Part shown: piece after piece, positions 6,094-29,439 of the stretch
Layout: each line of letters opens with the position of its first letter
How positions within the stretch are numbered: the stretch's first letter is position 1
From: a virus
Reading direction: 5' to 3' (one strand)
IMG/VR virus record: IMGVR_UViG_3300030114_000528
Coordinates: 1-32,889 of that record
Length of the DNA: 32,889 bases
The notes under the pieces: generated by a model
What the model was told of the DNA's origin: nothing
Database searches by the model: none
The model's input: the letters and a program-made list of their open reading frames with translations, nothing else
Program-made: the position numbers and the translations under genes

Positions 6094-7257
6094 ATGCTGA
6101 CACAGAGCAAAATTCAGGCAATGAAGCCGCGCACCCAGCGCTATGCAGTCGCCGATGGCCATGGGCTGACGCTGGAGGTGCAACCGAGCGGTGTGCGCAG
6201 TTGGCGGCTGCGCTATCGGTTTGCAGGGCGTCAGCGCCGCGTGAATCTCGGTCGTTGGCCGATGGTATCGCTTGCCGCGGCGCGCGAACAGACGCGGATG
6301 CTGCGCAGCCAACTCGCAGTCGGCCTGCCTCTGTCGTCGCGGTTCTTCTCATCGTCGCGGAAGGACGCCTCGCCAACATTCAAAGAGTTTGTCGAGCGCT
6401 ATCTGGGCGAGATTGTTTCCAAGGCGCGGCGCGCGCCGGCCGCTGTCGAGCGTTGGATCGATCGTGACCTGACTCCAGCCCTGGGCGCGCTGCCGATGCG
6501 CTCGATTACGGCCGAGCACGTTCGCGCCATCGTTTTTGCGCGGCGTGATTCCGGGAGGCCGCAAGCGGCGCGCGCATTGCGCAACCTGATCAAGCGCATC
6601 TTCGACTATGCCCAGGTCTGTGGCGTGGTCGATGCAAATCCTGCACACGCAGTCCCATTGAAGTTTGTGGCCAAGCCGCACACGCGTGATCGCGCCCTGA
6701 GTGAGGCCGAAATCGGTCTGTTTTTGCGTCGTCTGACTGTGGCGCCGATCAGGTCACAGCACAAGGCCGCGCTTCGTCTGATTCTGCTGACGATGGTGCG
6801 CAAAAGTGAACTGCGTTTGGCGCAGTGGGAGCATGTGCATCTGGATCGAGCCGAGTGGGAGATTCCGAAGGAAAGCTCGAAAACTGGCGCGGCGCAGATC
6901 GTTTACCTCTCACGCCAGGCCGTGGATCTGCTACGCGGCCTAGGTCCAGCGACTGGCTTTGTGCTGCCGCATCGTGCCAGCCAGACGCAGCCGATGGCAC
7001 CGAGCACGCTGAACCGCGCACTGGCCGTGGTCGCGCGCGGCATGATTCCGTTCACCGTTCACGATCTACGGCGCACGGCTGCCACGCGCCTAAGCGAAAT
7101 GGAATTCAACAAGGATTGGATTGAAAAGGCGATGAACCACACGCTGCCCGGTGTGCGCGGCATCTACAACCGCGCGCAGTACGCTAAGCAGCGCAGGCGT
7201 ATGTTGCAGACCTGGGCTGATGCCATGGATCGCATGGCTACCGCCGGGAAATTGTAG
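6094..7257 (+). CDS. int: P4-type tyrosine integrase
   Basis: This 387-residue protein has the DUF4102-type N-terminal DNA-binding domain (residues 1-90, with DGHGLTLEVQPSG and GRWPMVSLAAAR), a core-binding domain and a C-terminal catalytic domain. The catalytic set is complete: Arg236 (TMVRKSEL), Lys263 (KESSKTGAA), His323 and Arg326 (VHDLRRTAATRL), His349 (MNHTLPGVRG) and Tyr358 (IYNRAQY). It should cut and join attP and attB for integration and excision. AGGGA precedes the ATG by about six bases. Its 3' end overlaps a small convergent regulator by 20 bases. Length is normal for the family, with no sign of decay. A second, differently built recombinase lies 460 bases downstream. Confidence 0.93.
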   Translation: MLTQSKIQAMKPRTQRYAVADGHGLTLEVQPSGVRSWRLRYRFAGRQRRVNLGRWPMVSLAAAREQTRMLRSQLAVGLPLSSRFFSSSRKDASPTFKEFVERYLGEIVSKARRAPAAVERWIDRDLTPALGALPMRSITAEHVRAIVFARRDSGRPQAARALRNLIKRIFDYAQVCGVVDANPAHAVPLKFVAKPHTRDRALSEAEIGLFLRRLTVAPIRSQHKAALRLILLTMVRKSELRLAQWEHVHLDRAEWEIPKESSKTGAAQIVYLSRQAVDLLRGLGPATGFVLPHRASQTQPMAPSTLNRALAVVARGMIPFTVHDLRRTAATRLSEMEFNKDWIEKAMNHTLPGVRGIYNRAQYAKQRRRMLQTWADAMDRMATAGKL

Positions 7258-7553: not shown

Positions 7554-7751
7554 GTGGAGAAGCTTTTGACGCCAGTTGAAGTCGCAGAGATTTTGCAGGT
7601 GAAAGTTGATACGCTGCGCGCTTGGCGCGCACGCGGAAAAGGCCCAGAAGCAATCCATGTCGGCCGGTTATGCCGGTACGCCGAAAGCAGCATCCAGCAA
7701 TACACAAAGGGGGAATATGCCACAAACTGTGGCTCACGGCAGGAATGCTGA
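7554..7751 (+). CDS. xis: Excisionase-like helix-turn-helix protein
   Basis: The GTG start at 7554 has AGGAGG (7544-7549) four bases upstream. The 65-residue protein opens with LLTPVEVAEILQVKVDTLRAWRARGKGPEAIHVGRLCRYAESSI, the winged-helix pattern of HTH_17/MerR-like excisionases, ending in a conserved 'hhxhGrxxRY' strand. Such proteins bend attachment-site DNA and favour excision, and can also act as regulators. Its last 35 bases overlap the next gene, the second recombinase, so the two are probably translated together, the usual arrangement for xis-int pairs. The DNA-binding fold is well supported; the excision role is inferred from that arrangement. Confidence 0.75.
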   Translation: MEKLLTPVEVAEILQVKVDTLRAWRARGKGPEAIHVGRLCRYAESSIQQYTKGEYATNCGSRQEC

Positions 7752-8859
7752 TGGGCTCTATAAAAAGCGCGGAATCTGGTATTTTCGCGTAAGGGATGTG
7801 AACGGGAAATTGCGCGCCCTCTCAACAAGGACGCGCAATTATGCGGAAGCCAAGAGCATCAAAGCCGAAAAAGAGAAAGAAAGCCAAGACGGTATTAGCG
7901 TGGACCTGTCGCGTAGACGCTATTGCGATTTTGCGCAGGAATGGCTAGAGCACAAGCGCATTGATTTATCGCCCAGAACATTTCTCACTTATCGCTGGGC
8001 CGTGAATCTGTCCAGTGACGCGTTCGGCGCGCTCCCGCTCGGCAATATTACTCTCGAAATTATCCGTAACTATCAAACGGAACAAAGCAAACGCATCGCG
8101 CCGGGAAGCATCAACGTGCTGACTGGAGTGATTATTTCCATTCTGCATGCTGCCGAACTTGGCCACCGTATTCAAGGCAAGCTAAAAAAACTGCGTGTGA
8201 AAAAGGAGCGCGGCCGCATTTTTACGCCGGATGAATTGCAGCGAATATTGACCACAGCAGATCGCCGAAAATCTCACATAAAATACGCAATACGGCTATT
8301 TCTTGAAACCGGAATGCGCCATAAAGAGATGCGTACGATTCGGATTGGCAACATCAACCTAAAACAGAAGATACTGACGATTCCGCGCGATTCCACCAAA
8401 ACCGATTCAGGTGCACGGGTCATTCCGCTAACAGATGAGGCATGCTCTGCTTTGCAGCAATTGATTGCTCGGGCCTACAGACTCGGTGCATCTACCGACG
8501 CGCATTACCTGTTCCCCGTGCGCATTCAGGAGCGGGGCGTTACGTGGCATGATCCAGCAAGGCCGCAAGAACCATTTAATGATGCCTGGCGGAATCTTAA
8601 GAAAGCCGCTGGCGTCGATCCTCGGTTGCGATTACATGACCTGCGCCATCATGTTGTGACCGAAATGGCGGCCGCCGGTGTCCCTGGCCGGGTCGCCATG
8701 AAGTTGCTTGGATGGTCGAGCATGAGTATATTTGGCCGATATGAGCATCTGCAATCTGACGCGCTTCGCGCTGGGATCGAGCAATGGTCATCGGCCCGCA
8801 AGCGCCCGGTGAGCACCTATGAAGCCAGCGCTCCGGGGTCATCCTCGCGCGTTGCTTGA
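7717..8859 (+). CDS. int: Second tyrosine recombinase (phage integrase)
   Basis: The ATG at 7717 is preceded by AAGGGGG and lies inside the end of the excisionase-like gene. The 380-residue product has an N-terminal Arm-type domain (GLYKKRGIWYFRVRDVNGK), a SAM-like core-binding domain (about 70-155) and a catalytic domain with Arg201 (ETGMRHKEMR), Lys228 (DSTKTDSGARVIPL), His307 and Arg310 (LHDLRHHV), Trp333 in the His/Trp position (LLGWSSMSIFGRYEHL) and Tyr342. All active-site positions are filled, so it should be functional. It is not a copy of the first integrase: the N-terminal domain and motif spacing differ. Two intact integrases in one phage are unusual; one could be a resolvase or belong to a neighbouring element. 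Confidence 0.92.
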   Translation: MPQTVAHGRNADGLYKKRGIWYFRVRDVNGKLRALSTRTRNYAEAKSIKAEKEKESQDGISVDLSRRRYCDFAQEWLEHKRIDLSPRTFLTYRWAVNLSSDAFGALPLGNITLEIIRNYQTEQSKRIAPGSINVLTGVIISILHAAELGHRIQGKLKKLRVKKERGRIFTPDELQRILTTADRRKSHIKYAIRLFLETGMRHKEMRTIRIGNINLKQKILTIPRDSTKTDSGARVIPLTDEACSALQQLIARAYRLGASTDAHYLFPVRIQERGVTWHDPARPQEPFNDAWRNLKKAAGVDPRLRLHDLRHHVVTEMAAAGVPGRVAMKLLGWSSMSIFGRYEHLQSDALRAGIEQWSSARKRPVSTYEASAPGSSSRVA

Positions 8860-18895: not shown

Positions 18896-21319
18896 ATGGC
18901 AGGCGAAAAAGGCATCGTCATCAACATCTCGGGATCTGGCGAAGGCGCCGCTGAAGCGCTGCGCCAGATCGAAGCCAGGATGAAGGAGACGCAAGAGCGC
19001 GCATTGGCCATGCAGAGCCAAATTTCCAGCGCGACCGAAAGATTCAATGGCGAGTTGGAGGGGACAGTTTCTGCGGGGCGCGCGGCGGGCGGCGCAATGC
19101 ATGAAATTGAGGGAAAGCTGCCTACAAGGGCCTTTGAGGCGTTTATCGTAGACACTTTACGGCTTGGTCCAATTATCCAAGCTGCATTTCCCTTAATTGG
19201 CTTGATCGCATTTATCGATGTGGCCAAAGAGGGAATTGAAAAAATTCATTCAATGAGTGAGGCGGCCGAGCATGCCGCTGAAGAGATTCGACGCTCATGG
19301 GATAAAGTCAATACCTCATTGGCGCATTCTTCAAATGAGGTTGATGCTCAAATCGATAAGACCATCGAAGAAACAGACAAACTGCTTGGCCATCGCGGTC
19401 AAAACATCTTGCGCGAGCAGTTTGATGATGCGCGCGTCGCCGCCGATAAGCTGGGCGAGTCGATCCTCAAAGATCTGGAAGACTACGAAAAGCTCATAGA
19501 ACGCAAAGAAAATAAAATCGGTTTTTGGAATTCTCTTTTTACAGGGAAAGCTGAAACAAAAAAATCTGAAGACCTTTTACAGACCGTTCATGACAACCTG
19601 CAAAAAACATCGGATGAATACGATGCTTTGGTCAGTCGATCTGGTGAAACTGGAAATGGTCACTATCTGCAAGAGGCGCAGGAAGCGCGCATCATTCACT
19701 TGCAAAGCGTCTATGATGATGCAACCAAAAGAATTAACGCGGCACTTTCTGAATCGGAGAATGCGCAAAAAACATTCGAAGGTTCCGGAAAGACTGTTGG
19801 CAAAGACCAAACAGCAAACATCAATTTGCTAGCCGCAGCTCTTCGCAATCTTGCAGAGCAACAGCGCAACATCGGTACGCGCTACGCGGAGGACTCCGCA
19901 AAATCAAAAAATGCCGTAGTTACGCGCGCGCACTCCAACGAAGATGAGGACTCGAAACTGCGCCTGGGTCGCGAAAAGCTGACCAGCCAGGCCGCTGCCC
20001 TCGCGCGGGAGCTGCAGCAGACGCTCCAACGCGAGGCGGACGCGGAACTGCAGTTGGCCCAAGCCAAGGAAAACGCGGAACTCGCCATCATCAAGGCTGG
20101 CAATCAGGCGCAGTTACAGTTGCTGGAGTCGCAGCATGCGGCCGGCATCGTCGGCTTTGAAGAGTACTACGCGCGCCGCCTCGAACTCACCCAGTCTGCC
20201 ATCGACAAGGAAATCGACGTCGAGCGTACCAAGCGCGATCAGATTCAGCAGCAGATCGGCCAAATCAACGATCCGAACGGCGCGGAAAAGCAGCGCATTG
20301 CGGCGCTGCAGCGCCAGGTGGTCGAAGAGCAAGCGCAGATCGCACGCCTCGGCAAGGGCGGCGGCAGTCAGGAGCAACAGCGATCCATTGAGTTGCAGCA
20401 GAAGCTGATCGCAGACCAGGCCAAGGCCGCTGAAGAAGAAGTTCAGAACAAGATCCGCGTCGATGGCTTGCAAAAGGAGCTTGTCGCCTCACAGGCCAAG
20501 ATCACAGAGCTGGCTGTGCAGCGAGGCACTGCCGAGGTCCAGACGACAGCGGAACTCAACCAACAGCGCTGGGCGCAGCAGGTGGCCGCGGCGGAACAGA
20601 CCATTCGCGACCGTGAAAAGCAAGAGGCATGGACGCAGCGAATCCAGAGCCTCAAAACGCAGGGTGCGGAGGCCGGTCCCGAGGCGATGAATGTTGAGGC
20701 CGCGCGGGCAGCGTCACAAACCATCAGCAGCTTCATGAATCAGATGGCAGAAGGCGCCATGCGCGGAAAGATGAGCTTCCGGGATATGGCAGACTCCGTT
20801 ATCCTCGACCTCTCGCGCATGGCTATGAAGATGGCGGAAGAGCGCGCCATTCTTCCTTTTATGAGTTCGCTGTTTGGCATCTCAGGGGCGGGAAGTGGAT
20901 CGAACGCGCTGGCAGGCATCCTGCAACAGGGCGCCTCCAATGCGGCCAGCATGAGCACGAGCATTGACCTAAGCGATATTTCGATTCCGTACCTGGCCGG
21001 CGGTGGCGACATCGACAACGGCTGGGCGGTGGTCGGCGATGGTGGCGACGGCAGCGGATCAGAACTGTTCGCGCCTAAAGGCCCTGGTACCGTGCTGCCG
21101 CATGACGTGCTCGAAGGTTTGGCGGCCAACCGCGGTGGCGGCGGCACGCCCAACGTGACCATTAACACCATCAATAATTCAAGCTCGCCGGTGCAGCAGA
21201 GCACCGCTGGCGTCAACTATGACTCCCAGGCCAAGCAGTTCATCATTCACACGGTGCTTGAGGATATGAACCAGGGTGGCCCGGTCAGCGCGGCAATGTC
21301 GGGCTTTGCGCGGTCGTAA
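18896..21319 (+). CDS. Tail tape measure protein (lambda gpH-type C-terminus)
   Basis: This 807-residue protein sets tail length and is ejected with the DNA. GGAGG lies about eight bases before the ATG. Residues 1-70 begin GEKGIVINISGSGEGA; a hydrophobic segment (about 91-110, LGPIIQAAFPLIGLIAFIDV) could insert in the host membrane during ejection. Long coiled-coil stretches run from about 115 to 600, rich in Gln, Glu and Ala. Residues about 613-660 (FMNQMAEGAMRGKMSFRDMADSVILDLSRMAMKMAEERAILPF) match the C-terminal domain of lambda gpH-like tape measures. A Gly-rich tail follows. The region 19140-19900 is more AT-rich than the rest, suggesting mosaic origin. Its stop lies within the end of a convergent gene. 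Confidence 0.9.
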   Translation: MAGEKGIVINISGSGEGAAEALRQIEARMKETQERALAMQSQISSATERFNGELEGTVSAGRAAGGAMHEIEGKLPTRAFEAFIVDTLRLGPIIQAAFPLIGLIAFIDVAKEGIEKIHSMSEAAEHAAEEIRRSWDKVNTSLAHSSNEVDAQIDKTIEETDKLLGHRGQNILREQFDDARVAADKLGESILKDLEDYEKLIERKENKIGFWNSLFTGKAETKKSEDLLQTVHDNLQKTSDEYDALVSRSGETGNGHYLQEAQEARIIHLQSVYDDATKRINAALSESENAQKTFEGSGKTVGKDQTANINLLAAALRNLAEQQRNIGTRYAEDSAKSKNAVVTRAHSNEDEDSKLRLGREKLTSQAAALARELQQTLQREADAELQLAQAKENAELAIIKAGNQAQLQLLESQHAAGIVGFEEYYARRLELTQSAIDKEIDVERTKRDQIQQQIGQINDPNGAEKQRIAALQRQVVEEQAQIARLGKGGGSQEQQRSIELQQKLIADQAKAAEEEVQNKIRVDGLQKELVASQAKITELAVQRGTAEVQTTAELNQQRWAQQVAAAEQTIRDREKQEAWTQRIQSLKTQGAEAGPEAMNVEAARAASQTISSFMNQMAEGAMRGKMSFRDMADSVILDLSRMAMKMAEERAILPFMSSLFGISGAGSGSNALAGILQQGASNAASMSTSIDLSDISIPYLAGGGDIDNGWAVVGDGGDGSGSELFAPKGPGTVLPHDVLEGLAANRGGGGTPNVTINTINNSSSPVQQSTAGVNYDSQAKQFIIHTVLEDMNQGGPVSAAMSGFARS

Positions 21320-21929
21320 TCGTAGCTGGCATGGGTTCGCCACTGGCGGCCCATGCCAGCGAAATAACCCACCCGATAAAGGTCCAGCCAAGGAAGAGAT
21401 TGATCGCAAGAATGCCGTTGTGAGCCTTACATTTGCGCCGCTTTGAAACGATAGATGGAATGAAATAAATGGCAATTACACATAGAATTAATAACCATCC
21501 CTGTGAAAGACTGATATAAGGAGTCTCGGATTTTTGTTGTTGGTTGGATGCGCTTGTTTGTGCTATAGCCGCTTCTTTAGGGTTAATCACAGGAAGGAGT
21601 TTTGCCATGCACGGCATCCTTTTGCTTATCTCTTCATTGGAGAGCGCGTCATCTCCTGTGATTTTAAAGCTATCTACATATTCCCAATGACTCCCATATT
21701 TTTCTGGTCCCATAAACCATGCTTCAAAATTATTCTTACGGTATTTCAACTTGCGCGTGAATCCGTATTCCGGATCAGAATTTGTGCGACCAAGGCTCTC
21801 GGCCGTGGGTGCTCCACACGCCGTTTTCACACTCGACAGATCGTTATGTGGGTTGGGTGCCCATTTTGTTTCGGTAGCCGATGCTGTAACTGACAAAGTT
21901 ATGAGAGCAATAAAAATTCCAAATTTCAT
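21285..21929 (-). CDS. Superinfection-immunity-type membrane protein with signal peptide
   Basis: The minus-strand ATG at 21929 gives 214 residues with an evident Sec signal peptide (MKFGIFIALITLSVTASA); a TTG at 21938 is in frame but would spoil it. Residues about 20-115 are a periplasmic domain with two cysteines (Cys38, Cys107). Residues 143-196 contain the superinfection immunity domain seen in T4 Imm-type proteins: GWLLILCVIAIYFIP, KRRKCKAHNG, then LGWTFIGWVISLAWA. Such proteins sit in the inner membrane and block DNA entry of related phages. It overlaps the tape-measure end by 35 bases, tail to tail, and is AT-rich, so it looks like cargo. The added secreted domain is unusual for the family. 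Confidence 0.75.
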   Translation of the reverse strand: MKFGIFIALITLSVTASATETKWAPNPHNDLSSVKTACGAPTAESLGRTNSDPEYGFTRKLKYRKNNFEAWFMGPEKYGSHWEYVDSFKITGDDALSNEEISKRMPCMAKLLPVINPKEAAIAQTSASNQQQKSETPYISLSQGWLLILCVIAIYFIPSIVSKRRKCKAHNGILAINLFLGWTFIGWVISLAWAASGEPMPATITTAQSPTLPR

Positions 21930-21998
21930 GTCGTCCAATATCTAATGCGGTTTCAATTGCTTGCAGCCGTTTCATCGTTGCGATGTAAAGAAAGAACA

Positions 21999-22235
21999 TT
22001 AGTTGAGATGGATGCTGATGCTGTCTCCCGAGTCGCGGTCGTCGACTTCATCTGCTTCACCGATAGCAGCCCAAGCCAGAGATCCTACCCATCCCACGAA
22101 CGTCCATCCGAGCAAAAGAGAAACGATTGCGATTCCCGCAGTCGACTTGCAATTGCGTCGTTTGGCAATATAAATGGGAAGGAAGTACGCAACTATCCCA
22201 GCCACAATAAGCAAAAGCCCTAAAAAGTCAGCCAT
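21999..22235 (-). CDS. Superinfection immunity protein (Imm-like)
   Basis: This 78-residue minus-strand protein has GAAAGGG about six bases before its ATG. Two hydrophobic segments are joined by a basic loop: FLGLLLIVAGIVAYFLPIYI, AKRRNCKSTAG, then IVSLLLGWTFVGWVGSLAWAA. This is the whole superinfection-immunity domain and the size matches T4 Imm (83 residues). The motif KRRxCK and LGWTFxGWxxSLAWA is shared with the next gene downstream, so the two are related, one standing alone and one fused to a secreted domain. An acidic tail (EADEVDDRDSGD) ends the protein. It should act in the inner membrane to exclude other phages. Confidence 0.85.
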   Translation of the reverse strand: MADFLGLLLIVAGIVAYFLPIYIAKRRNCKSTAGIAIVSLLLGWTFVGWVGSLAWAAIGEADEVDDRDSGDSISIHLN

Positions 22236-22259
22236 GTTGATACCCTTTCACAAAAGTGG

Positions 22260-23006
22260 TCACAGTTTAACGCGGACACCTGTCCCCTGCAAGCTATTAT
22301 TGACGGCGATTTCCGTCGCGGCCTTCGAAAAATTCTCGGCAAACTTCTCCTCGACGACGACTTCAACGGTCTCGTCGACCGGGTGTCGGCCACGCAAGTG
22401 CGCGGAAGTAATCAGGATATAGTACGGAATGGCGGCTTCTCGGGCATCGGCTACGGCACGACCCATCAAGAAGAGGGCACTGCTTTTCAGGCGCACGATG
22501 AAGTAGTACATGCCGTCGCGGGCCATTGCGCGCCGCTGCCGCGTCTGCGTGCGCGTCAGTGGCCCCATAGTGGCGTTCAGCAGCATCTGCGAAGGCCGCC
22601 ACTTGGCCGGGATCGGGCCTGGGCAAATGCGGCGCAGCGCCTTGGTTGGCACGGCCAGGTAGCCTTGGGATCGCCACTGCACGCTGTAGGCATTCGGCCG
22701 CTTGGTGCCGCCATCTTCCTGCATGGGCATGTAGTCGGGCGCGCCGGTGCGCCGATTCTCTGTATCGGTATAGACCTGCGCCGTCAGATCGGTCTTCGTG
22801 GCCATCTTGGTCAGGGTCCGCTTCTGCGTCCAGTCGTTGCGCAGCTCGAAGACCTCGCCTTCTTTTGTGCGCACGGCGTCGCGTGCGTCCATCGCCGTCA
22901 TGGTCAGCGCCCGGGCAATGGTGAAGGGAAGCTGTTCCTCGCGCAGAATCTTGCAGGCCCGCATCGGCCCGTCGATGTCGACCTTGATGTCGAGAACATT
23001 CGCCAT
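22260..23006 (-). CDS. Phage morphogenesis protein, possibly minor tail protein Z-like
   Basis: The minus-strand ATG at 23006 gives 248 residues. The N-terminal part follows the pattern of Z-like minor tail proteins: EEQLPFTIARALTMTAMDARDAVRTKEGEVFELRNDWTQKRTLTKMATKTDLTAQVYTD ('LPxAhAxALxxTAxDhRxAh...hxxRxxxTxxxhxhxxAtKxxLxAxVhxD'), ending in a basic C-terminal region. In other phages this protein is encoded with the tail genes in the same direction; here it is reversed and heads the minus-strand immunity cassette, with 24 bases to the next gene. There is no SD, but a promoter-like motif of the late type precedes it. Being real is well supported; the Z-like role is moderate. Confidence 0.55.
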   Translation of the reverse strand: MANVLDIKVDIDGPMRACKILREEQLPFTIARALTMTAMDARDAVRTKEGEVFELRNDWTQKRTLTKMATKTDLTAQVYTDTENRRTGAPDYMPMQEDGGTKRPNAYSVQWRSQGYLAVPTKALRRICPGPIPAKWRPSQMLLNATMGPLTRTQTRQRRAMARDGMYYFIVRLKSSALFLMGRAVADAREAAIPYYILITSAHLRGRHPVDETVEVVVEEKFAENFSKAATEIAVNNSLQGTGVRVKL

Positions 23007-23320: not shown

Positions 23321-23707
23321 GTGGCAACCTATCCACAATTCCCCGAGCTGTCGCGCGGCTGGAAGCTGAGCCAGAGCGAGAGCGCGCTCGATCCCACGCT
23401 GCGCGACACGCAGTATGAAAACGGCATGGAGGCAACGCGTGCCCGGTGGACGCGCAACCGCCGCACATGGTCCATGTCGATTGCGTTGATCACACCGGCG
23501 GATAAAGACGCGCTCGACGCCTTCTACACCGACATGAAGACCGGCGCAGCCTATGGCGCGAAGCCGTTTCTCATCGTGGACCCGCGCAATCAGGAGAACC
23601 CGCAAACCTACATTGTGCGGTTCTACTCGCTGCCCAAATATACCGACGCCGGGTGGGTCGAGGGCTGCTATCGCCAGAACGTCACGTTTCAGGTTCGTGA
23701 GGTGTAG
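23321..23707 (+). CDS. Minor tail protein M-like
   Basis: A GTG start gives 128 residues. The pattern 'FPEL-RGWKLSQSESALDPTLRD-QYENGMEATRARWTRNRRTWSMSIALITPADKDALDAFY', ending with 'Y-VRFYSLP-Y...Y-QNVTFQVREV', is that of tail-tip M-like/DUF2460-related proteins, which connect tape measure and tip complex. The next two genes follow the lambda order M, L, K-I-J. Residues about 70-95 (KTGAAYGAKPFLIVDPRNQEN) form the conserved loop seen in these proteins. No SD is visible; the start is chosen because it follows the promoter motif and gives the normal length. Confidence 0.7.
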   Translation: MATYPQFPELSRGWKLSQSESALDPTLRDTQYENGMEATRARWTRNRRTWSMSIALITPADKDALDAFYTDMKTGAAYGAKPFLIVDPRNQENPQTYIVRFYSLPKYTDAGWVEGCYRQNVTFQVREV

Positions 23708-23709
23708 CC

Positions 23710-24396
23710 ATGTCGAATGCTCGTCCTCCCATTGCTCTGCTTTCCATCCTGGCCAACCGCGAGCGGCACGCCATCGCCAGCGGTGAGCCGTTTCTGCAGC
23801 TCATGGACATTGCTGTGCTCGTCGACGACACGACAACAGAACACGTCCGCCTGGCGCGCAACATCGACGACATCACCTTCGACGCCAACGACGGCAATGG
23901 CCCGCAGGTCTATCAGGCCTTCAACTTTGAAATGGGCGAGTGCAAAATCAGCTCGGACGGCAGCGTTCCTGAGGTGACCTTCACGGCCAGCAATGTGATG
24001 CGCATTTTACAGTCCACCATCGAGACGTATGGCGGCTTGTCCGGCTCTGAACTTTACCTCTACGCATTCAACACGACGCAACCGGCTGGCGAGCCAGACC
24101 TCGCCATGCAGTTCACCATCAAGCAAGCCACCTGCAACGCAAAAAACGTACAGATCAAATGTGGCGCGCCAAGCCCGATGCGGAGACTCTTCCCCACCTA
24201 CAAATATTGGCCGAACAGTTGCATTTGGCGCTACAAGAGCGGCGTTGGCTGCACCTACAGCGGCACCATGACTACCTGCTCCAAAACCATCGACGGCGAC
24301 AACGGGTGCAAGGCGCATTTTCCGAGCGCGGTGCTTCCCTTTGGCGGCTTCCCTGGCATTGACACCAACGGCATCACCGCAGCGGGGGTGGTGTAG
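23710..24396 (+). CDS. Minor tail protein L-like with four-cysteine cluster
   Basis: The 228-residue protein starts three bases after the M-like gene. The N-terminal half is a DUF1833-type beta domain with FNFEMGECKISSDGSVPEVTFTASNV. The C-terminal part has the spacing KY-x-x-NSCIWRYKSGVGCTYSGTMTTCSKTIDGDNGCKAHF, four cysteines corresponding to the iron-sulphur cluster-binding cysteines of lambda gpL. gpL joins the tip complex around J. The gene order and motif make the assignment strong. The C-terminal end (PFGGFPGIDTNGI) is also typical. Its stop is followed directly by the GTG of the tip fusion. Confidence 0.8.
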   Translation: MSNARPPIALLSILANRERHAIASGEPFLQLMDIAVLVDDTTTEHVRLARNIDDITFDANDGNGPQVYQAFNFEMGECKISSDGSVPEVTFTASNVMRILQSTIETYGGLSGSELYLYAFNTTQPAGEPDLAMQFTIKQATCNAKNVQIKCGAPSPMRRLFPTYKYWPNSCIWRYKSGVGCTYSGTMTTCSKTIDGDNGCKAHFPSAVLPFGGFPGIDTNGITAAGVV

Positions 24397-27300
24397 GTGG
24401 CCGCGCCCGGCGCAGTGCAGGCGCGCATCTATGCAGACCTGCTCGGCAAGCCATGGCGGCGCGGCGCGCGCGGCCCAGAGGCTTACGACTGCCTGGGGCT
24501 TGCGCTCGAGATCGCTCGTCGGCTTGGTCGCACTTTTCCGGCCTATGTTTCCACCGAGGCCGAGCTGCATGCGCAACTCGGCAGTGGTGGTGGCACGCTG
24601 GCCGACTGCCCGCGCATTGCCGCGCCGGAGCCGGGCGCCGTGGCCTTGCTGCGCATGAGCGTCGGAGAGCATCATCTGGCGTTTCTGGTTGACCGCTATC
24701 GCATGATTCACACCACGGAAGCTACGGGGTGCGTGGTCGAGCGCATCCTCGAGCCCATGTGGCAGCGCCGCATCATGGGCTATTTCCGTCTGGAGGGCAG
24801 TTCTCTTGTTGTAGCCGATGCGACAGCGCTGGAGCCTACTCCCGCGCCGCCAGTGCTGCATCTGGTCCATGTGCACAACCCGCTGATGCCGTCGACCTCA
24901 CGCGAGGCGCGCGAACTGGTATGGGTGCACTGCCGCACAGTGCGGGAATATCTGGATGAGGCCTTCCCGCTTGGCCATAACCTGCTGCTCGTGTCCCTCA
25001 ATGGCCGGATGCTGGCCGAGGTCGAACAGGCGCACGTCCTTCCGCGCGCCGGAGACTATCTTGTCGTTTCTCCCTCCATTGAGGGCGGTGGCGTCTTCCG
25101 CACGCTGGCCATGGTCGCGGTCATGGCGGCGTCCATCGCCGCAACTCATTTTTTAGGGCCTGCTGGATTTGGGTTGATGTCGGGTGTGTGGGCTTCCGTT
25201 GTTGGCGGTGCAGTTTCCATCGGCGGCAATCTGCTCATCAACACCTTTATGGGACTGACCCCGGCAACAAAGTCGAATCAGCCAAGCTGGGCATTCGGGG
25301 GGCCAACCACGCTGGCTTCACCCGGCGTTGTGATTCCGAAAGGGTACGGCACATTTCGCTCTGCCGGAAACATTATCGCCAGCTTCATTGACCTCGAGGG
25401 TGCAGACCAGTACATCAACGCTCTGGTTTGCTATGGCTTTGGACCGGCGCGCTCGATCTCTGACATCCAGATCAACAGCAAGAGCATCAGCAGCTACACA
25501 AACGTGCAATATTATCTGCGTTACGGCACAAACGATCAGACGGCGGTTCCGGCCTTTAACCGCGTGGTGAATGGCTACCCACAATCGACTCAGGTGCTGG
25601 TCTCGAGTGGTCCTGTCGTGGTGCCCGGCACCGGCGATCTGACGCAGGCCCTGCAGGTCGACATCGAAATGCCCGTTGGATGCTTCTACATCTCTGGCGC
25701 TGGCAACCAGCTCCCGCTCAAACTCATCTACAAGGTCGAGTACGCCGTGCACGGTACGAGCGACTGGCAGAATGTGATGCAGCCGGATTCGACCTCCGAC
25801 GTTGTCGTCTACAACAGCGATGGCAGTGTGAATTGGGATTCCACTCCGACGTGGGTGCTGAAGTGGACCGGCGGCGATCCCGCTTCCGGCATCGTGCTCA
25901 AAGGCGATAGCGGATCGCACACCGCCGGAGACACGGAAACCATCACGGAAACCGTGACCACGACCAACCCAGACACGAGCACATCCAGCGTCTCGATGAG
26001 CTTCACGGGCGAGTGGCAGCCCATCGACATCACGCTGAATCAGGTGAAGGTGAATAGCTGGCGCGCGGGCTGGGTAGTCTACGAGGATGACACCACATCC
26101 ACCGTCTACAACCGCACATCGATCTATGGCCTCGCGGCCAACAAGTACGACGTCCGCGTGACCAAATACGGCAACGAGCACGGCGACGGAACCCAGCTCC
26201 ACAACTACGACGAAGACAGCTCGCGTAAAGGCCAGCAGATCTGGATTCACTCGGTGAACGAGATCACCTATCAGGATCTGAGCTACCCCAACATGATCCT
26301 TGTCGGCATTCGGGCCCTGGCCACCAACCAGCTTTCCGGTTCCAGCATCAACATCACGGCTTTGATCGAGTACGGCTTGCGCACGCTCGACAACAACCTG
26401 CTGCCTGAGTCGTTGCAGGCATTCGAAGAAGACAATCCCGTCTGTGTGGCAGCCGACATGATGCTTGATCCGCTCTATGGCGGCGGCTCGTGGCCTGGAA
26501 TCAAGCCCGTGAACATCGAACGGTTCATCGACGAGTGGCTTGCCTGGGCAGAGCTGAACGATACGCTGGTTCCGGATGGCAACGGCAATAACATCCGTCT
26601 GCATGTGTTCAATGGCGTCTTTGACAACGAAGACAACCTTTGGAACCAGTTGCAGACGGTCGGCCGCATGTCGCGCGCCTGCATCGTGCCGATGGGGCTC
26701 GACTATGGCGTCTTCGTCAACCAGGACGATGACCCTGTGCAGATGTTTTCGGTGGGCAGCATCGTGATTGACTCGTTCGAAGAGACCTTCATGGATCTTG
26801 ACGAGCGGGCCAACCAGGTCGAGATAGAGTTTGCGGATTCCACGCGTTACTACAAGACCAACAACCCGCTCGTTTACATGGACCCGGCCGATCAGGAAGC
26901 CGGCGCGATTGTGAAGAATGTGCGCGTGCGCGGCACTGGTATCACAGTTCCGGCGCAGGCCTGGCATTATGGCCACTTCCTCGGCTTGTCGAACAAAAAA
27001 TTGCTGCGCACGGGCAAGTTCGACACCGACATTGAGGGGATTGCCTGCCGCCCGGGCAACGTCGTCATTTTGCAGCATGATGTGCCGGAGTGGGGCTGGG
27101 GCGGCCGTACGCTGCCTGAATCGACGGCGACCGTACTGAATGTGGATCGCAACGACCTGCCATGGGACGGCACGACGGCCTACAACGTGATCGTGCTTTT
27201 CCCGGATCTTGAGCGCTACACCGGAACGGTCACTGCTGTGGCTACCCTCACCGATTCCACCGGACTCAGCATCGGAACGCAGCTCACGCTTTCCACCTTC

Positions 27301-29439
27301 GATGCCGCCAACCGCGTTACACGCGCCCTCGTCGCGGGCAATGACTGCGCCATTCTTTCGAGTGCGGCTGGCTCGGTCACCGTGACGCTACCGCCCGGCT
27401 TTACGCCGACAGTGGGAATGGCCTACGCGCTCTATGACACCGATGTTCTCGAAACATCCACGGTGAGCGGCGTCGTCGCTGGCCCCAACAACACAATGCA
27501 GCTCACACTGGGGACAGGGTTCACCGCCGCGCCGGCGGATTTTTCCGTGTATTTCTATGGACAACCGGGCGCCCAGAAGCTGGCGCGCGTCACTTCCATT
27601 CGCAAGAAAAACGACTTCAAGGCCACCATCGAGTGGATCGACAAAGACTCAGGCATCTACGCGATTGGAACGCCTGTTGTTGGCGAAACCAGCGCCAGCA
27701 CTAGCACGGTCCCCGGTGTTTCAAATCTCAAAATTTCCGAGATCTTCCAGATCGTTTCCGGAAGCTATATGGACTATGCCGTACTGACCTGGACCAATGG
27801 GACCAACACTGCGGGCGTGGCCATTTACGGGACGATTGGCTCTGGATCGCCAACACTGCTCGTGCGGCAGACGGGAACGGCAACAACGTGGAAGTATCCA
27901 GTCAAAGCGGGCGTCACCATGAAGTTCACCGTGGTCGGCTTTGATTCATCGGACAACTACGCTGCGTTTTCGAGCGCCCCCTCGGTCTCTTTTACCGGCG
28001 AAGGCATCACGGATAATCTGTTACTCGGGTCGACTTTCCAGACGGGATTCACCTACTGGAACGTGAACCCGCGCTCAGGCGATTCCCTTGCCGCCAACAT
28101 CAACGGCTGGAACAGCAATTGCACTTATACCGTGGCCGGGTCCGCGCTCACCACCGCTCAAACGCTGCTTTCGCAGGTGATCTCAACCAGCGATTGGGCA
28201 GTTGGCGACAGCCTGATTCTTTCCGCTTACTTTTCGGTTGCTGGAACCCCAACGGGCAACCTCGTCGCCGACATCGCTTTTCAAGATGCCAGCGGCAGCC
28301 TATTGAGCACCTCGCGTGCCGTTCTCACACTGGCCGGCGCGGTCGTCGGCCTCTCTCGCGCGGCGACTGCCGTAACTGCGATTCCAATCAGCACAGCGCA
28401 GGTGACCGTGCGCATTCTCGTGGACGGCTCGACGTTGTCGCTGCCGGTGGGCACGGCCATCACCGTGCAGGATGTGCTGCTAGAGATTCCGTCGTCGGGT
28501 CAAACGTCGCCGAGCACCTGGGCCGATGCTGATGCCTCAAGCACGGCCACGTCCATCTCGTCCGGATCAAGCTCAAGCCTCCGCGCCCAGTCTTCCGTGT
28601 TGCCTACGATCTCCGGCAATCTGGCATATAGCCTCACCTCAACAACGGCCACCCTGAGCTGGAGCGATCTGGCAATTGGCTGGTCCGACGGCAGCGTGAC
28701 CTATGTTCCCGATGGATCGCTCGAAGAAGTTACGGGGCTCACGGCATCGACCGAATACTACGCCTATCCCTTCTGGGATGTGCTGAACGCCACCATGGGC
28801 CTCGTGTCGCCATCGACAGCAGTCGGGACTCCAGCCGTCCTCAGCACATCGTACGATGAGGTTGCCGACCTTGCATGCAAGGTCGACAACAGAGTCGCGA
28901 TCCATTCGGGCGGTTTCACTTTTACGACACCCGCGACCAGTTCGGGCTCAGGCTCTGGATCTGGAACAACCACGGGCGGTGGTGGAGGATACCGCTGCAC
29001 GCTGCGTGGCACGCCATTGCTGGGCGAGTTTGGACCTGTATCCAACGAAGTCGTCAAAGCGGTCTTTGACGCGAATGGTGAGTACGTCCTGCGAACTCCC
29101 TTTGGCGCCATGGAGCCCATCAAGAGCGCGCAGTGGGTCGAGGTCGACCACTACTATCGGATTGAAGTGGAGGGCTTCGCCGCCTTCTGCGCCTCGGGCA
29201 GCCATACACTTTTTGTCGAAGGAGAATCCCGGCAGCGGTGGTGCAGCACCATTCCGAACGGCTCCAAGGTCGCAACGGCCCGCGGCTACCGCGTGGCCAT
29301 CATCACGCGCATCGAGCGCCGTGGCGAAGTGCTGGCCATTGAACTCGAAGGCCCTACGCATCAGTATGTCGTGCTTGATGGCGTCTACACGCACAACATG
29401 AAAATGGACCCTGCGTCGCTTGATGTAGCGCTTGAGTAG
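24397..29439 (+). CDS. Tail-tip fusion: NlpC/P60 (K), I-like, J-like, C-terminal Hint domain
   Basis: One 1680-residue frame combines proteins that are separate in lambda. Residues 1-135 are an NlpC/P60 peptidase with Cys32 (YDCLGL), His93 (GEHHLAFLVD) and His105, which could cut cell-wall peptide. About 155-230 is an I-like domain, followed by two hydrophobic segments (about 231-290). About 300-1105 is the J-like core (PKGYGTFRSAGN, ALVCYGFGPARSISDIQING-type region). Fibronectin-like domains lie at about 1107-1200 and 1403-1480, with a carbohydrate-binding-like domain at 1203-1370. A Gly/Ser linker (about 1510-1533) leads to a Hint domain: Cys1534 (CTLRGTPLL), a SHTLFVEG block, and VYTHN ending at Asn1667, then 13 residues. 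The start is the GTG just after the L-like stop. Confidence 0.9.
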   Translation: MAAPGAVQARIYADLLGKPWRRGARGPEAYDCLGLALEIARRLGRTFPAYVSTEAELHAQLGSGGGTLADCPRIAAPEPGAVALLRMSVGEHHLAFLVDRYRMIHTTEATGCVVERILEPMWQRRIMGYFRLEGSSLVVADATALEPTPAPPVLHLVHVHNPLMPSTSREARELVWVHCRTVREYLDEAFPLGHNLLLVSLNGRMLAEVEQAHVLPRAGDYLVVSPSIEGGGVFRTLAMVAVMAASIAATHFLGPAGFGLMSGVWASVVGGAVSIGGNLLINTFMGLTPATKSNQPSWAFGGPTTLASPGVVIPKGYGTFRSAGNIIASFIDLEGADQYINALVCYGFGPARSISDIQINSKSISSYTNVQYYLRYGTNDQTAVPAFNRVVNGYPQSTQVLVSSGPVVVPGTGDLTQALQVDIEMPVGCFYISGAGNQLPLKLIYKVEYAVHGTSDWQNVMQPDSTSDVVVYNSDGSVNWDSTPTWVLKWTGGDPASGIVLKGDSGSHTAGDTETITETVTTTNPDTSTSSVSMSFTGEWQPIDITLNQVKVNSWRAGWVVYEDDTTSTVYNRTSIYGLAANKYDVRVTKYGNEHGDGTQLHNYDEDSSRKGQQIWIHSVNEITYQDLSYPNMILVGIRALATNQLSGSSINITALIEYGLRTLDNNLLPESLQAFEEDNPVCVAADMMLDPLYGGGSWPGIKPVNIERFIDEWLAWAELNDTLVPDGNGNNIRLHVFNGVFDNEDNLWNQLQTVGRMSRACIVPMGLDYGVFVNQDDDPVQMFSVGSIVIDSFEETFMDLDERANQVEIEFADSTRYYKTNNPLVYMDPADQEAGAIVKNVRVRGTGITVPAQAWHYGHFLGLSNKKLLRTGKFDTDIEGIACRPGNVVILQHDVPEWGWGGRTLPESTATVLNVDRNDLPWDGTTAYNVIVLFPDLERYTGTVTAVATLTDSTGLSIGTQLTLSTFDAANRVTRALVAGNDCAILSSAAGSVTVTLPPGFTPTVGMAYALYDTDVLETSTVSGVVAGPNNTMQLTLGTGFTAAPADFSVYFYGQPGAQKLARVTSIRKKNDFKATIEWIDKDSGIYAIGTPVVGETSASTSTVPGVSNLKISEIFQIVSGSYMDYAVLTWTNGTNTAGVAIYGTIGSGSPTLLVRQTGTATTWKYPVKAGVTMKFTVVGFDSSDNYAAFSSAPSVSFTGEGITDNLLLGSTFQTGFTYWNVNPRSGDSLAANINGWNSNCTYTVAGSALTTAQTLLSQVISTSDWAVGDSLILSAYFSVAGTPTGNLVADIAFQDASGSLLSTSRAVLTLAGAVVGLSRAATAVTAIPISTAQVTVRILVDGSTLSLPVGTAITVQDVLLEIPSSGQTSPSTWADADASSTATSISSGSSSSLRAQSSVLPTISGNLAYSLTSTTATLSWSDLAIGWSDGSVTYVPDGSLEEVTGLTASTEYYAYPFWDVLNATMGLVSPSTAVGTPAVLSTSYDEVADLACKVDNRVAIHSGGFTFTTPATSSGSGSGSGTTTGGGGGYRCTLRGTPLLGEFGPVSNEVVKAVFDANGEYVLRTPFGAMEPIKSAQWVEVDHYYRIEVEGFAAFCASGSHTLFVEGESRQRWCSTIPNGSKVATARGYRVAIITRIERRGEVLAIELEGPTHQYVVLDGVYTHNMKMDPASLDVALE

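What the first reader, a model, noticed from the sequence alone, without database searches (positions are those of the whole stretch)
21285..22235. Two superinfection-immunity proteins, one with a secreted domain, buried antisense in the tail module
Two adjacent minus-strand genes share the KRRxCK and LGWTFxGWxxSLAWA core. One is a minimal Imm-like protein; the other adds a signal peptide and about 95 periplasmic residues with two cysteines before the same core. A periplasmic sensor or blocker joined to the membrane immunity domain could recognise an incoming tail tip or ejected protein. Being reversed relative to the late genes allows expression in the lysogen. I know of the short Imm proteins but not of this fused form in a tail operon.
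Basis: partly seen in the sequence, partly recalled or inferred. Interest (0 to 1): 0.65.

Follow-up and report, generated by a model that had tools for sequence, protein, structure and literature searches.

The report
Exclusion-protein cargo site in phage tail
A phage whose relatives live in soil Acidobacteriota carries, on the reverse strand between its tail genes, two membrane proteins related to the T4 'immunity' protein that keeps rival phages' DNA out; one has gained an exported domain, and relatives use the same spot to carry other exported proteins or a restriction system.

Summary
Two minus-strand genes (78 and 214 aa) both match Pfam Imm_superinfect well above cut-off, as T4 Imm does. 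The larger adds a signal peptide and about 120 extracytoplasmic residues. In 27 related IMG/VR contigs and five Acidobacteriota prophages this gene is antisense to the tail module and convergent with the tape-measure gene. The gap between the two stop codons is a cargo site. It is empty in five cases. It holds Imm genes in 17 of 28 viral contigs, elsewhere unrelated exported proteins, and once a type II restriction-modification system plus Imm. The fused form recurs at this site in two relatives, with other N-domains. So the reversed orientation belongs to the tail gene, not the immunity genes, and does not by itself show expression in the lysogen. Most likely reading: a moron site for DNA-entry exclusion proteins, in which exported domains have been joined to an Imm membrane hairpin. 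Function is inferred only: PF14373 is also common in Acidobacteriota chromosomes, and the N-domain has no known relative or confident fold. New variant of a known kind.

The parts
21285..21929 (-). sec-Imm (P0001), 214 aa: signal peptide (about 1-18), extracytoplasmic domain with C39 and C108, Q/S-rich linker (about 115-140), Imm_superinfect hairpin (154-194), short tail
   Evidence: PF14373 52.2 bits, phrog_1039 E 2.6e-19; AF2: core helices 141-164 and 170-196 at pLDDT about 90, N-domain mostly under 50; open N-terminal frame 5/5000 shuffles
21999..22235 (-). minimal Imm protein (P0002), 78 aa, acidic C-terminal tail
   Evidence: PF14373 54.6 bits, phrog_1039 E 1e-19; core 57% identical to P0001's core
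22260..23006 (-). tail-completion protein (lambda gpZ / HK97 gp10-like), 248 aa, first gene of the minus-strand block
   Evidence: phrog_1924 minor tail E 1e-27; one aligned relative hits PF06763 Minor_tail_Z; AF2 pLDDT 76.9; VIA Z 8.9, rmsd 3.6 over 107 of 109 residues to SaPI1 neck tail-completion protein 9mu2_P, next Z 3.8
18896..21319 (+). tail tape-measure protein, convergent with the cargo; its end overlaps P0001 by 35 bp
   Evidence: PF09718 E 3.7e-8, phrog_24 E 2.8e-14
23321..23707 (+). small tail protein in the lambda M position, diverging from the tail-completion gene (homologues in L007, L009 and other relatives)
   Evidence: tblastn synteny; phrog_384 E 1e-9
23710..24396 (+). minor tail protein L
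   Evidence: PF05100 E 1.1e-6, phrog_18 E 2e-18
24397..29439 (+). central tail fibre J
   Evidence: phrog_31 E 1.1e-75
21286..22259 (.). cargo site: interval between the tail-completion stop and the tape-measure stop, empty in L056 and L218-L221
   Evidence: G+C 0.46 against 0.57 for the window

Best explanation
The two genes are moron cargo sitting at a conserved site: the gap between an antisense tail-completion gene and the convergent tape-measure gene of lambda-like siphophages whose relatives are prophages of Acidobacteriota. Both encode inner-membrane hairpin proteins of the T4 Imm family that most likely stop the DNA of superinfecting phages from crossing the inner membrane. In P0001 a signal peptide exports an extra, disulphide-capable domain, which I infer binds a component of the incoming injection machinery (tape-measure protein or tail tip, or a host entry factor) in the periplasm, so that the membrane hairpin acts at the right place. 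Shown: family membership, fusion, recurrence, site conservation and cargo turnover. Inferred: topology, exclusion activity, target, timing. They probably share a transcript with the tail-completion gene, with or without a weak promoter of their own.
For: PF14373 and phrog_1039 hits for both proteins, and T4 Imm in the same Pfam family. Antisense tail-completion gene conserved in 28 viral contigs including the window and 5 Acidobacteriota prophages. Imm at this site in 17 of 28 contigs and in L224. Fused signal-peptide + Imm forms also at this site in L107 (172 aa) and L058 (121 aa), with different N-parts. Exported protein next to Imm in L007, L055, L224; R-M genes next to Imm in L116. Empty sites L056, L218-L221. 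Tail-completion proteins 97% identical carry different cargo (L039 Imm, L045 exported protein). Low G+C. A basic loop between the two helices in nearly all relatives puts that loop inside and both ends outside, which suits an exported N-domain. Other siphophage exclusion proteins (Ltp, HK97 gp15) are linked to the tape measure or tail genes by escape data (PMC10883804). T4 excludes with a membrane protein, Imm, plus a small exported protein, Spackle (PMC7677548).
Against: No experiment. PF14373 is a short two-helix family present in 161 of 398 genomes of one Acidobacteriota family, the 30 sampled being mostly a distinct short subfamily whose role is unknown, so the Pfam name does not prove exclusion. 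Some Imm homologues end in zinc-ribbon or SHOCT domains, usually cytoplasmic, which conflicts with an outside C-terminus. The N-domain has no homologue in any library and no confident fold. No sigma-70-like promoter was seen for the block.
Confidence: 0.55

Rival explanations
1. General lysogenic-conversion membrane proteins: PF14373 hairpins are generic envelope or stress proteins picked up from the acidobacterial chromosome, with no role in phage exclusion.
For: PF14373 in 161 of 398 genomes of the host family, mostly one copy each; exported cargo at the site is diverse and often lacks Imm.
Against: The chromosomal proteins sampled are a recognisably different subfamily; phage copies recur in tail modules, also after a tail-tube-like gene in L198 and L199 and just upstream of a 3-kb gene followed by minor tail protein M in Pseudomonas phage YMC11/02/R656; an R-M system shares the site (L116).
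Confidence: 0.2
2. The fused protein works by the exported domain alone (a Spackle- or Ltp-like blocker of a tail enzyme or the tape measure), and the Imm hairpin is only a membrane anchor.
For: Exported proteins occur at this site without any Imm (L044, L045, L047, L048, L052, L053); the window already has a separate minimal Imm; Spackle is a small exported blocker (PMC7677548).
Against: The Imm core of P0001 keeps the positions that are invariant in the family, more than an anchor needs; no sequence similarity to T4 Spackle.
Confidence: 0.13
3. The genes are part of tail assembly or timing of the lytic cycle (co-transcribed with the tail-completion gene), not defence.
For: Position directly after a tail-completion gene with a 24-bp gap and no visible promoter.
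Against: Close relatives lack them completely (L056, L218-L221) or have unrelated cargo, so they are dispensable for tails; low G+C.
Confidence: 0.07
4. Secreted toxin plus membrane immunity protein, used against competing cells.
For: Exported protein next to a small membrane protein in L007, L055, L224.
Against: Fusion of both parts in one chain (window, L107, L058) makes little sense for a toxin and its immunity; no toxin domain found.
Confidence: 0.03

Closest known systems
T4 Imm (PF14373, phrog_1039)
   Same: Same Pfam family, 36% identity over the 47-residue hairpin; two-helix inner-membrane protein
   Different: T4 Imm is 83 aa with no exported domain and lies among replication genes; here one copy is fused to an exported domain and both lie antisense in the tail module
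T4 Spackle
   Same: Small exported protein that works beside Imm in superinfection exclusion (PMC7677548)
   Different: Separate polypeptide, inhibits gp5 lysozyme; no sequence similarity to P0001
HK97 gp15 moron
   Same: Small inner-membrane exclusion protein encoded as a moron next to the tape-measure gene; HK97 also has a 'reverse moron', gp23, in its tail region (PMC10883804)
   Different: gp15 matches YebO (PF13974), not Imm; sense strand, with an annotated terminator; lies upstream of the tape-measure gene
TP-J34 Ltp / Tuc2009 Sie2009
   Same: Envelope-anchored proteins that block DNA injection; tape-measure changes overcome Ltp (PMC10883804)
   Different: Gram-positive hosts, other protein families, no Imm hairpin known to me
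Noncontiguous operons of Tha/Ith in S. aureus prophages
   Same: Defence genes arranged opposite to other phage genes in prophages (PMC11087260)
   Different: Regulatory antisense pair in the cI operon; here the antisense unit begins with a virion gene

Membership tests
Imm_superinfect (PF14373) | Match to the profile above its gathering score | tested here: met
   52.2 and 54.6 bits against 27.9; T4 Imm 58.2 bits
Imm_superinfect (PF14373) | Two hydrophobic helices joined by a short basic loop | tested here: met
   Hydropathy and charges; AF2 helices 141-164 and 170-196
Superinfection-exclusion proteins (functional class) | Expression blocks infection by other phages at DNA entry | not testable with these tools
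   No experimental data for this or any near relative
Superinfection-exclusion proteins (functional class) | Expressed in the lysogen or early in infection | tested here: inconclusive
   No sigma-70-like minus-strand site upstream; the scan does not cover other promoter types
T4 Spackle family | Sequence similarity to gp61.3 | tested here: not met
   No local alignment at E <= 100
HK97 gp15 / YebO family | Match to PF13974 | tested here: not met
   P0001 and P0002 have no PF13974 match; HK97 gp15 does
Tail-completion protein (gpZ / HK97 gp10-like), for 22260-23006 | Profile or fold match to known tail-completion proteins | tested here: met
   phrog_1924 E 1e-27; Z 8.9 to 9mu2_P, SaPI1 neck; PF06763 only for one distant relative
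Moron | Extra gene absent from close relatives, inserted between conserved genes, differing G+C | tested here: met
   Empty sites L056, L218-L221; G+C 0.46 vs 0.57
Moron | Own promoter and terminator | tested here: inconclusive
   None seen upstream on the minus strand by a sigma-70 scan

The most novel reading that the evidence does not exclude
A dedicated defence-cargo site, hitched to an antisense tail-completion gene and abutting the tape-measure gene, in which exchangeable exported domains are joined to a common Imm membrane hairpin; the exported domain sets which phage's injection apparatus is recognised and the hairpin blocks the DNA, so one polypeptide does what T4 does with Spackle plus Imm.
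Probability: 0.3. Interest if true: 0.72.

Novelty: new variant of a known kind. Interest (0 to 1): 0.52.

Why it matters
How Imm-type proteins block DNA entry is, to my knowledge, still unclear. Natural fusions of one hairpin to several unrelated exported domains, next to the tape-measure gene, would give a direct handle on target recognition by domain swaps. The site is also a compact source of untested anti-phage candidates (exported proteins, Imm fusions, an R-M system) from phages of Acidobacteriota, a phylum with few studied phages.

Tried and rejected
N-domain relatives: none in phages by tblastn at E 10, Pfam at E 10, PHROGs, NCBIfam and PADLOC, PDB sequences, or 8-mer scans of IMG/VR and genome contigs, which returned only core matches. 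AF2 of P0001 gave a low-confidence N-domain, so no fold search was made with it. Similarity of the N-domain to the exported proteins of L007, L107, L045, L047, L052: none. The Acinetobacter phage SPB hit covering 71% of P0001 (H1) looked like a fusion but is an unrelated upstream ORF plus a 70-aa Imm. Long Imm frames in L049, L147, L163 and L009 are upstream read-through frames, judged by eye, not fusions. Recent tandem duplication of the two window genes: rejected, as P0001's core is nearer to L116, L107 and L058 (63-67%) than to P0002 (57%). Relatives of the L-type tail protein in 398 genomes of the phylum of Woodsholea maritima: none. Foldseek alone gave no significant match for the tail-completion model; the match came from the VIA second look.

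Full report
Observation. The two minus-strand genes are real. P0002 (22235-21999, 78 aa) and P0001 (21929-21285, 214 aa) match Pfam PF14373 with 54.6 and 52.2 bits (cut-off 27.9) and phrog_1039 'immunity to superinfection'. T4 Imm, taken from the T4 record, scores 58.2 bits in the same family and aligns 36% with P0001 over the 47-residue hairpin. P0001 has a signal-peptide-like start, two cysteines, a Q/S-rich linker and then the core. An open N-terminal frame of that length is rare in shuffles, 5 of 5000.

The same strand carries a third gene directly upstream (23006-22260), with 24 bp between its stop and P0002's start. It is a tail-completion protein: phrog_1924 minor tail E 1e-27, one aligned distant relative hits PF06763 gpZ, and the AlphaFold model (pLDDT 76.9) matches the tail-completion protein of the SaPI1 neck at Z 8.9 over 107 of its 109 residues, the next chain being at Z 3.8. 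Foldseek alone gave no significant hit. So the minus-strand block begins with a virion protein gene; P0001's end runs 35 bp into the convergent tape-measure gene.

Conserved site. Profile-based scans of IMG/VR gave 27 further contigs with the order J, L, M on one strand and the tail-completion gene on the other (L039/L041, L042/L043 and L049/L050 are near-duplicates). The next long ORF, convergent, is a tape measure by PHROGs in all seven contigs tested. Five prophages in genomes of one Acidobacteriota family (by search centre: the phylum of a contig titled Acidobacteriaceae) have the same arrangement. In two other genomes of that family a close homologue of the tail-completion gene lies on the same strand as the tape-measure match, upstream of it (L222, L223), so the antisense position looks like a lineage-specific relocation (inference).

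Cargo. Between the tail-completion stop and the tape-measure stop there is nothing in L056, L218, L219, L220 and L221 (stops overlap or lie within about 5 bp). Elsewhere there is cargo: Imm in 17 of 28 viral contigs (window included) and in L224; exported proteins without Imm in L044, L045, L047, L048, L052 and L053; exported protein beside Imm in L007, L055 and L224 (the last with a lipobox-like start); a C5 methylase, Vsr and MvaI/BcnI-family nuclease beside Imm in L116. Tail-completion proteins 97% identical (L039, L045) have different cargo. Several cargo genes end with their stop overlapping the tape-measure stop by a few bases. G+C of the window's cargo is 0.46 against 0.57 overall. These are the marks of a moron site with quick turnover.

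The fused form. Of 88 distinct Imm-bearing frames collected (before the genome searches), those that by eye have a signal peptide and an exported stretch before the core are L107 (172 aa, about 90 exported residues with two cysteines) and L058 (121 aa, about 30 exported residues), both at this site, besides the window. Their N-parts show no similarity to P0001's (for L107; L058 by eye). In L007 an exported 140-aa protein is followed at once by a remnant of an Imm core whose DNA reads almost like P0001's (FLGWTFIGWVI), then a 3' fragment of the tail-completion gene, then an intact Imm. This points to assembly by recombination among cassettes. P0001's core is nearer to those of L116, L107 and L058 than to P0002's, so the window pair is not a recent duplication.

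Mechanism. Shown: family, architecture, site. Inferred: the connecting loop is basic in almost all relatives while the tails are on the whole less basic, which by the positive-inside rule puts the loop in the cytoplasm and both ends outside; a signal peptide plus exported domain can be added without disturbing that. T4 Imm is annotated as a membrane protein that leaves superinfecting DNA in the periplasm. [quoted passage not shown] the membrane nuclease SNIPE also associates with the tape measure (PMC13190303). T4 uses Imm together with exported Spackle (PMC7677548). I therefore take the exported domain of P0001 to be a recogniser of an injection component and the hairpin to be the block. The step from hairpin to block and the target are not shown.

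Expression. The reversed strand is not evidence for lysogenic expression, since it is inherited from the tail-completion gene and is seen with no cargo. The simple scan found no sigma-70-like minus-strand site upstream; the host may use other promoters. HK97 shows that a moron by the tape measure can protect a lysogen (PMC10883804), and antisense units can switch defence in prophages (PMC11087260), so lysogenic expression remains possible.

Limits. The Pfam name is weak evidence of function: 161 of 398 genomes of the host family carry PF14373, and the sampled ones are mainly a distinct short subfamily. Zinc-ribbon and SHOCT tails on other homologues sit badly with an outside C-terminus. The N-domain is an orphan. 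IMG/VR contigs are mostly fragments, but the arrangement recurs in separate metagenomes and in genome assemblies, which argues against an assembly artefact. The window's own host is not known; Acidobacteriota is inferred from relatives.

Verdict. A new variant of a known kind: Imm-family exclusion morons, here with a recurrent exported-domain fusion at a conserved antisense cargo site. Interest 0.52.

Noticed in passing
window 6094-7257 and 7606-8859: Two tyrosine integrase genes side by side on the same strand, which suggests a temperate phage and perhaps a second integrated element or a recombined boundary.
   Followed up: no
L116 3006-5862: C5 methylase, Vsr and MvaI/BcnI-family restriction nuclease inserted between the antisense tail-completion gene and an Imm gene.
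   Followed up: partly
L231-L260: PF14373 occurs in 161 of 398 genomes of one Acidobacteriota family, mostly one short copy of a distinct subfamily (FFFPFFGFGFxMYFLPSIIALARSKRD...); its cellular role is unknown.
   Followed up: partly
L007 5095-5436: Remnant Imm core (FLGWTFIGWVI) followed by a 3' fragment of the tail-completion gene, a fossil of cassette recombination.
   Followed up: partly
L198 1781-2035, L199 8182-8466: Imm genes of the same subclade on the sense strand just after a tail-tube-like gene of other siphophages.
   Followed up: no
L004 3986-4573 (Pseudomonas phage YMC11/02/R656): Imm hairpin with a C-terminal zinc ribbon and a further domain of about 75 residues, encoded just upstream of a 3-kb gene followed by minor tail protein M.
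   Followed up: partly
L044 6742-7251, L048 6721-7251, L038 6798-7307: About 169-residue proteins, not obviously exported and of similar length, in the same cargo site; no Pfam match for the L044 one.
   Followed up: no
window, P0001 codon 110 (about 21600): Possible internal start (AAAAGGATGCCGTGCATG) that would give a 105-residue Imm without the exported domain.
   Followed up: no
L007 3353-3547: 64-aa HTH protein between the M-position gene and the antisense tail-completion gene, a possible regulator of the divergent region.
   Followed up: no
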